Shown here one piece after another: positions 20,542 to 24,805 of a stretch of DNA of 64,000 bases. The stretch is from Euhalothece natronophila Z-M001. GTDB taxonomy: Bacteria; Cyanobacteriota; Cyanobacteriia; Cyanobacteriales; Rubidibacteraceae. The notes under the pieces were generated by a model. That model was not told the DNA's origin, made no database searches, and saw only the letters and a program-made list of their open reading frames with translations. A program made the translations under genes and the position numbers. The first letter of the stretch is position 1. The number at the start of each line of letters is the position of its first letter. Location of the stretch: contig NZ_CP042326.1 in NCBI RefSeq assembly GCF_007904085.1, positions 1,302,001 through 1,366,000 on the forward strand. Reading direction: 5' to 3'.

Positions 20542-21705
20542 TCAAATTTTACCTGATTTGGAGTTTTTATTTTTTTTCTTAGGATAAGTAAAAGCCCGCG
20601 ATCGAATTGAATCTATTTCAGGAATATCAGTTGCTTTTTCCATGTTTTCTTTTTCTTGATCTAACTGCAAAATTGCATGACCAATTGCTTTTGCCATCAA
20701 CGGCGGAACGGCATTTCCAATCTGTCGCCACTGTTGAGTCACTGTTCCACAAAAAATATAGTTTGCAGGAAAGGATTGAATGGCAGCGGCTTCTCTTGCG
20801 GTAAGATATCGATCTTCTGTGGGATGATAGAAAGTTGTACGGCTGGTGTTAATTGTACCAGCACAAGCAGCGCGATCGAGCCGTCTTAATTTTGCTTCTC
20901 GAAAACGTCTTTCTAATAACTGTTCCCAATCAACATCAAACCACAATTCAGGAGGTAAATAAGTTTTTTGATCTCTTTCATATCGAATACTTCCCCCTTC
21001 TGGAATATAACTTAAACGTTTTTTCTCCAGAGGATTAGCAATTTGAGCTTTTTCTAGATCATGATTAAACATTTGATTATCATCTGTTTTTAAATGCTCA
21101 AACGCCCAAGCTACTGTTGTGGGTAAAGAAGAACCTTTTTCCTCTTCTTCAGGATCAGTAAATACAATTTCAGGATACAAGTTTTGAACTTGAAAGCGAT
21201 TAGCTAATAAAATGCTTCGTCTTCTTTTTTCAGGAACACCATAATGATGTGCTGATAAAACTCTGATATCAACCCGATAGCCAAGTTTTCTAAAACTATC
21301 AAGAATTACCTTGAGAGTAGATTCATTTCTTCTTGATAAAAGTCCTGTTACATTTTCCATAATGACATAATCAGGGGAAAGACCTTCGATAATACGTAAG
21401 AAGTCCCCAAAAAGAAAATTCCGTTGATCTTGATGATTATTTTGACCAATTGTAGAAAATCCTTGACAGGGTGGTCCTCCACAAATTAAATCAATTTTTT
21501 CATAACCCACTGCTTCCTGAATTGTCTCTAGAGAAATTCCTCTTAAATCGCCAATAATAGTTTCTGCTTTTTCATGGTTTAATTGAAAAGTTTTAATAGC
21601 TGTTGCGTCGTAATCAACTCCCAGTAAACATTGAAATCCTGCCATCTCTAGTCCACAGGACATTCCACCAGCTCCTGAAAATAAATCAATAAATTTCTTT
21701 TTCAT
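20542..21705 (-). CDS. C5-cytosine DNA methyltransferase
   Basis: 387-residue m5C methyltransferase. Motif I DLFSGAGGMSCGLEMAGF, motif IV with catalytic Cys in GGPPCQGFSTIG, motif VI ENVTGLL, motif VIII near RRRSILLANRF, and motifs IX-X (LTAREAAAIQSFPANY; QIGNAVPPLMAKAIG) occur in canonical order. The variable target-recognition region lies about 190-290. A Lys/Asn-rich tail ends the protein. No endonuclease gene is adjacent, so it looks solitary or has lost its partner. It is relatively AT-rich with no full HIP1 octamer inside, unlike many neighbours. Target site unknown; CGATCG (HIP1 core) is one candidate because some cyanobacterial solitary m5C enzymes act there. Confidence 0.95.
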   Translation of the reverse strand: MKKKFIDLFSGAGGMSCGLEMAGFQCLLGVDYDATAIKTFQLNHEKAETIIGDLRGISLETIQEAVGYEKIDLICGGPPCQGFSTIGQNNHQDQRNFLFGDFLRIIEGLSPDYVIMENVTGLLSRRNESTLKVILDSFRKLGYRVDIRVLSAHHYGVPEKRRRSILLANRFQVQNLYPEIVFTDPEEEEKGSSLPTTVAWAFEHLKTDDNQMFNHDLEKAQIANPLEKKRLSYIPEGGSIRYERDQKTYLPPELWFDVDWEQLLERRFREAKLRRLDRAACAGTINTSRTTFYHPTEDRYLTAREAAAIQSFPANYIFCGTVTQQWRQIGNAVPPLMAKAIGHAILQLDQEKENMEKATDIPEIDSIRSRAFTYPKKKNKNSKSGKI

Positions 21706-21726
21706 AGTTGTATTATTATGCTATCT

Positions 21727-21930
21727 TTAGTATTTATATTTGTTTTGTCGTTCTTTAGCTCTAATTTTAGGTTTTGTTTTAGCAATTTTAGCTACTTTTT
21801 GCCATTCTGCCTCATCTAAAAGGACATCTAAAACATCTGAAATATTACATTTCTGTTCAAAAGCAATCCGTCGCAATATGTCATGATGTTTAGGTTGGAT
21901 ATAAACAGGTTTTCTGTGTGTTTGAGCCAT
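21727..21930 (-). CDS. Small ribbon-helix-helix-like protein upstream of the methyltransferase
   Basis: 67 residues: a short strand-like start (HRKPVYIQPKHHDILRRIAF) followed by NISDVLDVLLDEAEWQKVAK and a Lys/Arg-rich tail. The YIQPKHHDILRRIAFEQ...ISDVLDVLL pattern resembles CopG/Arc ribbon-helix-helix proteins. It ends 21 bases before the methyltransferase start on the same strand, so the two probably form an operon. A regulator of the methyltransferase or an antitoxin-like remnant are both possible. Confidence 0.65.
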   Translation of the reverse strand: MAQTHRKPVYIQPKHHDILRRIAFEQKCNISDVLDVLLDEAEWQKVAKIAKTKPKIRAKERQNKYKY

Positions 21931-22140
21931 CTTAATTTATTGAGCTATCTTTTTTCTAATTATAGCAATAATTAGCTAATTAGCTATTTAGAATACAGGA
22001 TATAGGGAATCTTCGAGAACTATTAATGAGTTCAATAGGGTAGTGACATGAGGAAAAAAAACGGACGATCGCGCTTCTGTACCGTTTCGATATAAGATAA
22101 AATTGCCAAAAATTGACCCATCATTTTATATTACTGGTTT

Positions 22141-22539
22141 ATGGAACCTCCTGTAGAACGGATTCGCTTGTCTAAAATGGGGCGCGATCAACTGATTAAA
22201 CTTAAACGCTATACAAAAATTGAGCAATGGAATATTCTCTGTCGTTGGGGGTTTTGTCGTTCTCTAGCTGAACCAACTAAGCCGTCTCCTGTTCCCATTC
22301 CAGCAGATAGTAACTTAGAACTAACTTGGCGCGTCTTTGGGGGAGAAATGTCAGATTTGTTAGTAATTGCCCTCAAACAGCGCTGTTATCAGGATGGGTT
22401 AGGCACTGATTCAGAAACCCTTGCCCAGCAGTTTCGATTACATCTTCATCGCGGTATTAGCTATTTAGCAGGGGATATTAATATAAAAAGCATTGAAGAT
22501 TTGGTGAAAACAGTTGAGAGGAAAGAGTCAGCATCGTGA
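22141..22539 (+). CDS. dndE: DndE-like DNA sulfur modification protein (solitary)
   Basis: 132 residues beginning MEPPVERIRLSKMGRDQLIK and containing IEQWNILCRWGFCRSLAEP, ADSNLELTWRVFGGEMSDLL and LAQQFRLHLHRGISYLAG. This is the characteristic pattern of DndE, the small partner of the DndBCD phosphorothioation complex (family knowledge). dndB, dndC, dndD and the dndFGH restriction genes are not in the flanking 20 kb on either side. Its stop overlaps the GTG start of the downstream esterase (GTGA). It lies 200 bases from the divergent RHH-methyltransferase unit. Whether it acts with remote dnd genes cannot be seen here. Confidence 0.88.
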   Translation: MEPPVERIRLSKMGRDQLIKLKRYTKIEQWNILCRWGFCRSLAEPTKPSPVPIPADSNLELTWRVFGGEMSDLLVIALKQRCYQDGLGTDSETLAQQFRLHLHRGISYLAGDINIKSIEDLVKTVERKESAS

Positions 22540-23723
22540 TCCTTTTACAAGTTCTAAGTTTAATCGTTGCTGTTTTGGGAATTTTTCTTGCACTTTGGAT
22601 AGTTCTTCCAGCGCCTACAATGTTTTTCTTACCTTTTGGGGTGGTGGCAGCCGAAGTGAGTCCATGGTTAGTCGTTTTCAACCTGATCGCGCTTTTGTTA
22701 ACAACCTTTTTTCTTCCCTTGAATTGGTTACAGTATAGTTTAATCAGTGGTAGCGCGATCGCGCTGATAGTTAGTACCCTCCCCCTCCTTCAATTTCCAA
22801 GAAGTCATACTCACTTTACTCAGGAAATGGAAACTCAATTAGGGAGTGATTATCTCAAGGAAGTTCCCGAGGCAATTCAAGGCAAAATGCGCCCTCAACC
22901 CCTTGTAGTGACAGACATAGTAAGAGGAATTTCTCTGCCAGAGATTCGCATCCAAAGAGACATTCCCTTTGCCCATCCTGAAGGAGTAGAACTTAAACTT
23001 AACACTTATCAGCCCTTAGAAACTGGAAAACATCCCACCCTTGTAATCATTTATGGAGGCGCGTGGCGACAAGGAAACCCCAGTAATAACGAAGCCTTTA
23101 GTCGCTACATGGCTAGTCAAAACTATACCGTCATTGCCATTGATTATCGCCATGCCCCACAACACAAATTTCCAGCACAGCTAGAAGATGTCCAAACTGC
23201 TCTCCAGTATATCCAAGATCATGCTGATGAATTAGAAGTAGATACAGAACGCATGGCAATTATGGGGCGATCTGCAGGCGGTCATCTTGCCATGCTTGCC
23301 GCTTATCAGCCTCATGGGATGAAATTTCGCGCAGTTGTTAACTATTATGGCCCGATCAACCTTAGTAATGGTTATTATGATCTCCCCTCTCCTGATCCCA
23401 TTAATATACAAGCCGTGCTTCGTAATTTCTTAGGGGGAACACCTGAAGAGTTACCAGAACGCTATCAAGAGGCTTCCCCATCTAGTTATTTAAGACCCAA
23501 TCTCCCCCCATCTTTACTGATATATGCAGGGCGCGATCACTTAGTACAAGCAAAGTTTGGGAAGAGACTGGATCAAAACTTGCAAGCTAAAGATAATCTG
23601 TCGGTTTATTTAGAAATCCCTTGGGCAGAACACGCCTTTGATGCACTGTTTTCTGGGATTAGTAATCAGCTAGCTTTATACCATACCGAACGCTTTCTGG
23701 CATGGGCTTTACGTAAGAATTAA
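22536..23723 (+). CDS. Membrane-anchored alpha/beta hydrolase (BD-FAE/esterase-lipase type)
   Basis: 395 residues from GTG 22536. Three hydrophobic segments occupy about 1-90. The alpha/beta hydrolase domain follows: oxyanion-region [16 protein letters not shown], nucleophile elbow MGRSAGGH, acid in YAGRDHLVQ and catalytic His in AEHAFDALF. It resembles BD-FAE/carboxylesterase proteins acting on acyl esters. It is translationally coupled with dndE, an unexpected partner; no known role in DNA sulfur chemistry. Overlaps convergent amiE by 4 bases. Confidence 0.87.
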
Positions 23724-24805
23724 CCTTTGACTTGCACCGAGTTCGTGGCTGACTCTGATTTTGTTGCAGGCTGAACCTTGGACTGATTAGGCAATCCTTC
23801 CATAGGACATTCTTCAGTTCCAACCGTGTCACGAGTGATGGCTTCTGCTTTTTCTTTAGCTTTTTCTGGGTCAAGAATCCATTCCCGATAGAAATCATAG
23901 GGACATTGTTGCATTCCATCTTCATCATCCCCAGAGTTAATCATACCTGTATAGCCGCGATGGAGGAGCTTAAAGAGATGATTTTGAGATTGGGCATTTT
24001 TGCGGAAATCACGGATAGCAAATTTAGAAAGAGTCGCATACTGCACCCCATTTTCTTCCTCGCCACATTCTCCAAGCGTCCGCCCATCAAAGCCGACAAT
24101 TGCAGAGTGACCAAAATAGCTGTAAACGCCATCAAACCCAGACGCATTGGCTACCGCCACATAAGTATTATTCATCCAAGCCATTGCTTTGGAAACCATA
24201 ATTTGCTGTTCTTTCGCAGGATACATATAACCCTGACAGCGAACAATTAATTCTGCCCCTTTCATGGCACAATCGCGCCAGATTTCAGGGTAATTCCCAT
24301 CATCACAAATAATCAAGCTAATTTTAAGTCCTTTAGGCCCTTCTGAAACATAGGTATGTTCTCCGGGATACCAGCCTTCAATGGGACACCAAGGCATAAT
24401 TTTGCGGTATTTTTGAACAATCTCCCCCTGATCATTCATTAAAATTAGGGTGTTGTAGGGAACTTTTTTCGGGTGGTCTTCGTGCTTTTCACCTGTAAGG
24501 GAAAAAACGCCCCAAGTGCGGTTACGAATACAGGCTTCGGCAAAAATTTCGGTTTCTGCACCCGGAATATCAGAAGCCGTTGCCATCATCTCATCAGGAT
24601 CATACATAATGCCATGAGTGGAATACTCGGGAAAAATTACTAAATCCATTCCAGGTAATCCCACTTTTAGCCCATCCATAACTGAGGCAATATTCTTACA
24701 GTTCTCAATTACCTCTTCTTTTGTATGCAAACGAGGCATCTTGTAGTTAACCACTGCTACCCCAACTGCATCTGCGCTGGATGAAATATCGCCATGATAT
24801 GCCAT
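23720..24805 (-). CDS. amiE: Aliphatic amidase
   Basis: 361-residue nitrilase-superfamily enzyme hydrolysing short aliphatic amides to acids and ammonia. The catalytic triad is Glu60 ([10 protein letters not shown]), Lys135 (QKYRKIMPW) and Cys167 ([11 protein letters not shown]). Strong landmarks of AmiE over formamidase are [20 protein letters not shown] and the C-terminal [18 protein letters not shown]. The C-terminal ~20 residues ([20 protein letters not shown]) extend past the usual 346 residues. Likely a nitrogen scavenging enzyme, fitting the nitrate and urease genes nearby. Confidence 0.95.

What the first reader, a model, noticed from the sequence alone, without database searches (positions are those of the whole stretch)
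22141..22539. Solitary dndE without dndBCD
DndE is normally encoded with dndB, dndC and dndD for DNA phosphorothioation. Here it stands 200 bases from a divergent methyltransferase unit and is translationally coupled (GTGA) to a membrane esterase. No other dnd or dnd-restriction gene lies in the window. It may be a relic, a remote partner, or a DndE recruited to another role.
Basis: partly seen in the sequence, partly recalled or inferred. Interest (0 to 1): 0.7.

Follow-up and report, generated by a model that had tools for sequence, protein, structure and literature searches.

The report
DndE working far from its partners
The small DNA-sulfur-modification gene that looked orphaned is a real, well-conserved DndE whose partner genes lie elsewhere on the same chromosome, and many related cyanobacteria keep this machine as a scattered set of genes.

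Summary
The ORF at 22141-22539 is a genuine DndE: Pfam and NCBIfam scores are well over cut-off and the predicted fold matches solved DndE. It is solitary only in the window. The same contig carries dndC and dndD as a pair 767 kb away, a CxC-type ABC ATPase 179 kb away and dpa4 1.75 Mb away. All 6 genomes of the genus have DndE, DndC and DndD; dndE is certainly apart from dndD in 4, so an assembly break is excluded. In 291 sampled genomes of the phylum DndE occurs in 74; 71 of these also have DndC and DndD over cut-off. Of 73 genomes with DndD and DndE, 47 keep them within 10 kb, 23 are certainly apart, 3 undetermined. DndE is under purifying selection. The esterase is near dndE in 0 of 15 other loci. 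Best reading: a working phosphorothioation subunit supplied in trans. This contradicts a published statement that DndD and DndE are always linked; some splitting in cyanobacteria was already reported. Side finding: Dpa4 is predicted to have a DndE-like fold. Phosphorothioate itself was not tested.

The parts
22141..22539 (+). dndE, 132 aa, DNA phosphorothioation subunit DndE (predicted double ribbon-helix-helix DNA-binding protein)
   Evidence: PF08870 148.6 bits; TIGR03184 124.4 bits; AlphaFold2 mean pLDDT 91.2; best PDB match DndE 7x4e, Foldseek E 7.8e-06, TM 0.84 by target length, 0.73 by query length
22536..22539 (+). GTGA overlap between the dndE stop codon and the GTG start of the downstream esterase ORF; not seen at the other loci examined
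   Evidence: sequence; the esterase is not near dndE in 15 other loci
22536..23723 (+). neighbour, not thought to be part of the system: 395-aa alpha/beta hydrolase (BD-FAE / Abhydrolase_3) with a hydrophobic N-terminus
   Evidence: Pfam 147.8 and 90.7 bits; pairing not conserved
20542..21930 (-). neighbour, not thought to be part of the system: C5-cytosine DNA methyltransferase (20542-21705) and 67-aa ORF (21727-21930)
   Evidence: PF00145 246.7 bits; TIGR00675 204.8 bits; not found beside dndE elsewhere, apart from one 37% partial methyltransferase match about 7.6 kb from dndE in L042

Best explanation
The ORF is the DndE subunit of a working DNA phosphorothioation system whose genes are scattered over the chromosome. 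SHOWN here: the gene is an intact, conserved DndE; the same contig encodes full-length DndC and DndD 767 kb away; the three genes occur together in all 6 genomes of the genus; across the order DndE is kept together with DndC and DndD with few exceptions. INFERRED from the literature: DndE is made from its own transcription unit, diffuses to DndD, binds its second coiled coil through hydrophobic helices, and the DndC-DndD-DndE complex closes round DNA and swaps sulfur for oxygen at a short motif, with sulfur from a housekeeping cysteine desulfurase, since only half of a dndA/sspA-like gene lies beside dndC. Loss of operon order did not stop the proteins from assembling. By the published pattern for the DndC specificity loop (here Arg-Asn-Arg, which fits Arg-x-Lys/Arg) the target would be GGCC; that step is a weak inference, since genus mates G001-G003 have Arg-Gln-Gly there.
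For: Profile and fold membership. E. coli DndE R5, K18 and K20 align with R7, K20 and K22; R7 and K20 are invariant and K22 nearly so in 18 cyanobacterial DndEs (roles from passages of PMC12193691 and PMC4182426). dndC 673.9 and dndD 668.7 bits on the same contig. Genus: 6 of 6 genomes have DndE, DndC and DndD over cut-off (in G005 DndD is cut by a contig end). D-E distance 767 kb, 365 kb and 1.16 Mb in the three with chromosome-scale contigs, and at least 22 kb in G004 from its contig ends; in G003 and G005 they are on different contigs, distance unknown. Phylum sample of 291: DndE 74, DndC over cut-off 73, DndD over cut-off 74, all three 71. In the order 72 of 83 have DndE, of which 70 have DndC and 71 DndD over cut-off; of the 11 without DndE, 9 lack DndC and DndD over cut-off too. 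DndE dN/dS 0.059-0.145 in six pairs of the genus, like dndC and dndD. DndE distances follow DndD after control for DnaG (partial r 0.46 in 40 genomes, 0 of 2000 permutations).
Against: No direct evidence of phosphorothioate. dndB not found by two models and only the C-terminal half of a DndA/SspA-like desulfurase lies by dndC. E. coli K17 aligns with I19. In the 15 genomes scored as unlinked the DndE-DndD correlation beyond DnaG is weak (0.21, 23 of 2000), and DndE follows DnaG better (0.49 given C and D). dS in the genus pairs is 0.77-1.83, near saturation, so the ratios are rough. G006, a family member, keeps DndE but no DndC or DndD over cut-off. G070 and G169 also lack a DndC over cut-off; G016 and G058 have DndC but no DndE.
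Confidence: 0.8

Rival explanations
1. The remote DndE mainly serves the CxC-type ABC ATPase (PbeC-like) rather than DndD, that is, it has been recruited to another role.
For: The genome has a CxC-type ATPase (CIC motif at residue 339). G006 keeps DndE, the CxC ATPase and Dpa4 but no DndC or DndD over cut-off.
Against: The CxC ATPase has a better candidate of its own: Dpa4, predicted to have a DndE-like fold, present in all 70 genomes in which I counted a CxC ATPase from the capped list, and within 5 kb of it in 37. G080 and G209 keep DndC, DndD and DndE although they lack Dpa4 and gave only one DndD-like match each (in one search only 4 candidates per genome were scored, so a second one could have been missed).
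Confidence: 0.08
2. The gene is a relic of a dismantled dnd operon, still intact by chance.
For: dndB and a full dndA are not seen (a full dndA was not searched genome-wide); G006 may be such a case, with dndCD missing and the TIGR04096 gene in pieces; a dpa4 remnant with five stops persists in G266.
Against: DndE dN/dS 0.059-0.145 in the genus; DndE over cut-off in 6 of 6 genus genomes, with DndC and DndD in each.
Confidence: 0.07
3. DndE and the esterase form a functional pair, as the GTGA coupling might suggest.
For: Overlapping stop and start.
Against: The esterase is not found near dndE in any of 15 other loci, 7 of them (from 6 genomes) in the same family, where DndE itself is 73-89% identical.
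Confidence: 0.02

Closest known systems
Canonical dndBCDE phosphorothioation operon (Streptomyces, Salmonella, E. coli B7A)
   Same: DndC, DndD and DndE all present and full length; DndE has the same fold and three of the published key residues aligned
   Different: dndE lies 767 kb from dndCD; dndB not found by two models; only half of a desulfurase gene beside dndC
Cyanobacteriales dnd system of Jian et al. 2021 (PMC8569181; passages and section 7 read)
   Different: In the parts read, no count of genomes where dndE is remote from dndD while the parts are kept; here 23 of 73. They report clusters only in that order; here two genomes of other orders of the class, G169 and G191, also have DndE and DndD
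Split dnd in Microcoleus and toxic Microcystis (PMC8546630, passages read)
   Same: dnd genes reported apart: dndBC and dndDE on different contigs, at least 40 kb apart
   Different: There dndD and dndE are named as one group, and the split was read as possibly influencing function; here dndE is apart from dndD and the parts are kept in the same genomes
PbeABCD / CxC ABC ATPase systems (PMC6459918 passages; PMC10853773 passages and section 16)
   Same: The genome has a CxC-type ATPase and Dpa4, of about the size given for PbeD (152 aa) and with a predicted DndE-like fold
   Different: The two genes are 1.57 Mb apart in the window's genome; PbeA and PbeB were not searched for there

Membership tests
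DndE protein family | Match to curated DndE models over cut-off | tested here: met
   PF08870 148.6 bits vs 25; TIGR03184 124.4 vs 71.85
DndE protein family | Fold of solved DndE (two ribbon-helix-helix units per PMC10853773) | tested here: met
   AlphaFold2 model pLDDT 91.2, strands and helices in the order E-H-H-E-H-H-H; Foldseek 7x4e E 7.8e-06, TM 0.84, and 4lrv
DndE protein family | Required for DNA phosphorothioation | not testable with these tools
   needs a deletion mutant and LC-MS/MS
Dnd phosphorothioation system | DndC and DndD encoded in the same genome | tested here: met
   673.9 and 668.7 bits, both over cut-off
Dnd phosphorothioation system | DndB encoded (not essential for modification per PMC8569181) | tested here: inconclusive
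   no match with TIGR03233 or TIGR03187; PF14072 was not searched genome-wide
Dnd phosphorothioation system | Phosphorothioate present in genomic DNA | not testable with these tools
   needs LC-MS/MS or iodine cleavage
[quoted passage not shown]
   767 kb apart on one contig; certainly apart in 23 of 73 genomes with both, 47 linked, 3 undetermined
PbeABCD system | CxC-type ABC ATPase (PbeC) | tested here: met
   CIC motif mid-protein in 7 of 7 such ATPases checked and in 0 of 75 DndDs. PADLOC PbeC 917.3 bits does not decide it, since the true DndD also scores best with a PbeC model (957.5 against 770.2 for DndD)
PbeABCD system | PbeA and PbeB present | not tested

The most novel reading that the evidence does not exclude
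In Cyanobacteriales phosphorothioation has become a lasting chromosomal function rather than a mobile defence cassette: two ABC ATPase / double-RHH pairs (DndD with DndE, and the CxC ATPase with Dpa4), plus DndC, are encoded at up to five separate loci, inherited vertically, and assembled in trans, with the RHH subunits as diffusible target-scanning parts.
Probability: 0.35. Interest if true: 0.65.

Novelty: new variant of a known kind. Interest (0 to 1): 0.45.

Why it matters
Defence and modification systems are usually found, and annotated, by looking for neighbouring genes. Here a set would be called 'orphan' or 'incomplete' by such rules although its parts are kept together at genome level. 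It contradicts the statement that DndD and DndE always sit side by side, gives a natural test of whether they must be made together to assemble, and argues that in these cyanobacteria the modification is a lasting chromosomal function. The DndE-like fold predicted for Dpa4 gives that poorly described family a testable role.

Tried and rejected
Rejected: assembly artefact. Three genus members with chromosome-scale contigs have dndE 365 kb, 767 kb and 1.16 Mb from dndD, and G004 at least 22 kb by its contig ends. Rejected: dndE-esterase or dndE-methyltransferase unit; of 10 window neighbours searched for at E 1e-8 in 15 other dndE loci, the only hit was a 37% partial C5-methyltransferase match in L042, about 7.6 kb from dndE. 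Promoter and terminator scan of 21700-23900 gave no more sites than shuffles (3 against a mean of 4.3; 1 against 1.8), so whether dndE has its own promoter is open.

Weaker than hoped: co-evolution. With DndC as the only control the DndE-DndD partial correlation was 0.70 in 73 genomes and 0.59 in 17 (G169 and G172 were dropped beforehand for divergent or split DndC). With DnaG as control it fell to 0.46 in 40 genomes that I chose out of those with dnd, and to 0.21 in the 15 scored as unlinked; the 'rest' group of that test still held G105, G111 and G122, which are also apart. In the unlinked set DndE follows DnaG (raw 0.89; 0.49 given DndC and DndD) better than DndD, which mainly shows vertical inheritance.

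Dpa4: sequence profiles of DndE and Dpa4 do not align (hhalign probability 1.2). Foldseek gave no match under E 0.001 (best 0.45; the first nine rows are all DndE). VIA-align 2 gave Z 9.4, 9.3 and 8.7 against 2.3 for the next entry, but that tool warns that Z under about 13 for mostly helical models may mean only a common arrangement, and the five models varied (pLDDT 67.7-81.1). PADLOC and Pfam do not recognise Dpa4. PADLOC's PbeC models do not tell DndD from the CxC ATPase. The GGCC guess: 39 of 75 DndC loops fit Arg-x-Lys/Arg, 25 have another triplet, in 11 the pattern was not found; G000 and G004 fit, G001, G002 and G003 do not. TIGR04096 methyltransferase is not specific to dnd genomes (84 of 291 over cut-off, several without dnd). 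Counts over named loci are biased: 80 best of 520 confirmed were kept; of the 35 with at least 9.5 kb on both sides 31 have DndD nearby and 4 do not. The genome searches scored only a few candidates per genome for DndD (4).

Full report
WHAT IS THERE. The ORF at 22141-22539 (132 aa) is a DndE by Pfam (148.6 bits, whole profile) and by the NCBIfam equivalog (124.4 bits against a cut-off of 71.85). An AlphaFold2 model built on 18 cyanobacterial DndEs has mean pLDDT 91.2, and its best solved matches are DndE of Natronorubrum bangense (7x4e, Foldseek E 7.8e-06, TM 0.84 by target length) and of E. coli B7A (4lrv). In the alignment to the E. coli chain R5, K18 and K20 fall on R7, K20 and K22, while K17 falls on I19; R7 and K20 are invariant and K22 nearly invariant in the 18 sequences. 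PMC12193691 (passages and section 10 read) predicts that R5 points to the DNA space; PMC4182426 (passages read) calls K18 and K20 the two most essential lysines for nicked-DNA binding in vitro, though no single mutant abolished modification in vivo.

IT IS NOT ALONE IN THE GENOME. The window is G000:C1:1302001-1366000 on a 3.33 Mb contig. That contig carries dndC (552489-553823) and dndD (554984-556945) as a pair, the only DndE match at 1324159-1324491, a CxC-type ABC ATPase at 1503410-1505359 and dpa4 at 3071904-3072359. dndD and dndE are 767 kb apart. The ATPase has the CIC motif mid-protein, as have 7 of 7 such proteins checked and 0 of 75 DndDs. dndB was not found by TIGR03233 or TIGR03187.

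THE LAYOUT IS REAL. All 6 genomes of the genus have DndE, DndC and DndD over cut-off (DndD of G005 is cut by a contig end). In the three with chromosome-scale contigs dndE lies 767 kb, 365 kb and 1.16 Mb from dndD; in G004 at least 22 kb by contig ends; in G003 and G005 the genes are on different contigs at unknown distance. The genus includes a MAG named Halothece sp., judged by identical contig numbers and lengths. In the phylum sample of 291 genomes DndE is found in 74, DndC over cut-off in 73, DndD over cut-off in 74, all three in 71. DndE without DndC: G006, G070, G169; without DndD: G006; DndC without DndE: G016, G058; DndD without DndE: G016. In the order 72 of 83 sampled genomes have DndE, 70 of them with DndC and 71 with DndD over cut-off; of the 11 without DndE, 9 lack DndC and DndD over cut-off too.

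HOW OFTEN THE DYAD IS BROKEN. Of 73 genomes with DndD and DndE, 47 have them within 10 kb, 12 have them on one contig more than 100 kb apart, 11 on different contigs at least 10 kb apart for certain, and 3 are undetermined. In families f2 and f8 all three genes are apart in 8 of 8 genomes where they share one contig, and the CxC ATPase and dpa4 lie elsewhere again (the CxC position of G144 was not listed). On a quick DnaG tree of 40 chosen genomes (18 apart, 22 linked; 12 of 37 inner branches unsupported) the state needs at least 5 changes. [quoted passage not shown] the prefix 'cyanobacter' does not occur in its main text). A 2008 paper said dndC-D-E are still clustered in cyanobacteria (PMC2442094, passages).

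IS THE REMOTE COPY KEPT BY SELECTION? Pairwise dN/dS for DndE in the genus is 0.059-0.145 in six pairs among five genomes, in the range of dndC (0.062-0.126) and dndD (0.086-0.112); dS is 0.77-1.83, so the ratios are rough. Outside the genus DndE gave 0.022-0.165 in six pairs and no value in two saturated ones. DndE distances follow DndD distances after control for DnaG (0.46 in 40 genomes, 0 of 2000 permutations; 0.21 in the 15 unlinked, 23 of 2000), while they do not follow DndC (0.05 and 0.04). The figure for the unlinked set is weak, and there DndE follows DnaG better than DndD.

THE NEIGHBOURS. The GTGA overlap with the esterase exists, but the esterase is not found near dndE in 15 other loci, 7 of them (6 genomes) from the same family with DndE 73-89% identical. 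Of 10 window neighbours searched for, the only hit was a 37% partial C5-methyltransferase match in L042. Three of those loci are short or cut at a contig end (L043, L056, L057).

STAGES OF LOSS. G006, of another genus in the family, keeps DndE, the CxC ATPase and Dpa4 but shows no DndC or DndD over cut-off, and its TIGR04096 gene is in pieces; it is a draft of about 200 contigs, so a gap cannot be excluded. G007 and G008 have no DndE, no DndC and no DndD over cut-off. G266 holds a dpa4 remnant with five stop codons.

A SECOND DndE-LIKE PROTEIN. Dpa4 (TIGR04062) is over cut-off in 74 of 291 genomes. I counted a CxC ATPase in 70 genomes from the capped list, picking by length and score; all 70 have Dpa4, within 5 kb in 37. 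Four genomes with Dpa4 had no CxC ATPase in that list (G019, G097, G144, G150). A Dpa4 model from 20 rows (pLDDT 81.1) aligns to DndE structures with Z 9.4, 9.3 and 8.7 against 2.3 for the next entry, though neither sequence profiles nor Foldseek (E 0.45) reach significance and the tool warns about helical folds. PMC6459918 (passages) gives PbeD 152 aa; the Dpa4 proteins here are 152-159 aa. I infer that Dpa4 is the DndE-type partner of the CxC ATPase. 'TIGR04062' and 'phosphorothioation-associated' do not occur in the main text of PMC10853773, and a search for the phrase 'DNA phosphorothioation-associated protein' listed one paper, a Rhodococcus genome (listing only).

MECHANISM. Shown: the parts, their positions and their conservation. 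Inferred from literature: DndE binds the second coiled coil of DndD, and the DndCDE complex encircles DNA and inserts sulfur (PMC12193691, largely predicted structures with pull-downs). The own DndC has the loop GYPAPRNRFRW, which fits the Arg-x-Lys/Arg pattern that paper links to GGCC; 39 of 75 cyanobacterial loops fit, and three of the four genus mates examined do not. Sulfur probably comes from a housekeeping desulfurase, since the gene beside dndC is only the C-terminal half of a DndA/SspA-like protein.

WHAT IS NEW. Vertical inheritance and disordered dnd loci in Cyanobacteriales are known (PMC8569181, passages and section 7), and dndBC/dndDE splitting is reported for Microcoleus and toxic Microcystis (PMC8546630, passages). 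I found no account of co-retained but fully scattered sets with dndE remote from dndD in searches and the passages read; subscription papers and supplements were not seen. I file this as a new variant of a known kind.

Noticed in passing
L190:5889-6362 (own genome C1:3071904-3072359) and relatives: Dpa4 (TIGR04062) has a predicted DndE-like fold (VIA Z 9.4 to 7x4e, model of the relative in L202) and was present in all 70 genomes counted with a CxC ATPase; sequence methods do not show the relation.
   Followed up: partly
L039:1532-7038 (own genome, upstream of dndC): A truncated SspC-like ORF (PADLOC 980.9 bits over 711 of 1104 positions), an ORF with an HNH_4 domain, and the C-terminal half of a DndA/SspA-like desulfurase lie in a row before dndC, after an ORF that looks like a TnpB (recalled, not scanned).
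   Followed up: partly
L063:6301-7506: In G169 a divergent DndC-like gene (137.5 bits, below cut-off 290.4) sits next to dndE and dndD, while only a C-terminal fragment of canonical dndC was matched nearby.
   Followed up: no
L063:16365-18485 and L064:12620-13591: Beside the dnd genes of G169 lies a PbeA-like nuclease-helicase (PADLOC 804.6 bits), and in G191 a protein like phosphorothioated-DNA restriction enzymes (NF045808 151.7 bits, below its cut-off of 180).
   Followed up: no
   Followed up: no
G266:C1:991789-991995: A dpa4 remnant with five stop codons in a genome without DndE, DndC or DndD matches.
   Followed up: no
L056 and L057 (G005): Two DndE copies, each at a contig end of an 85% complete MAG; a duplicate or a mixed bin.
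   Followed up: no
window 20542-21930: C5-cytosine methyltransferase with a 67-aa ORF that weakly resembles a plasmid copy-control protein (19.3 bits, below cut-off).
   Followed up: no
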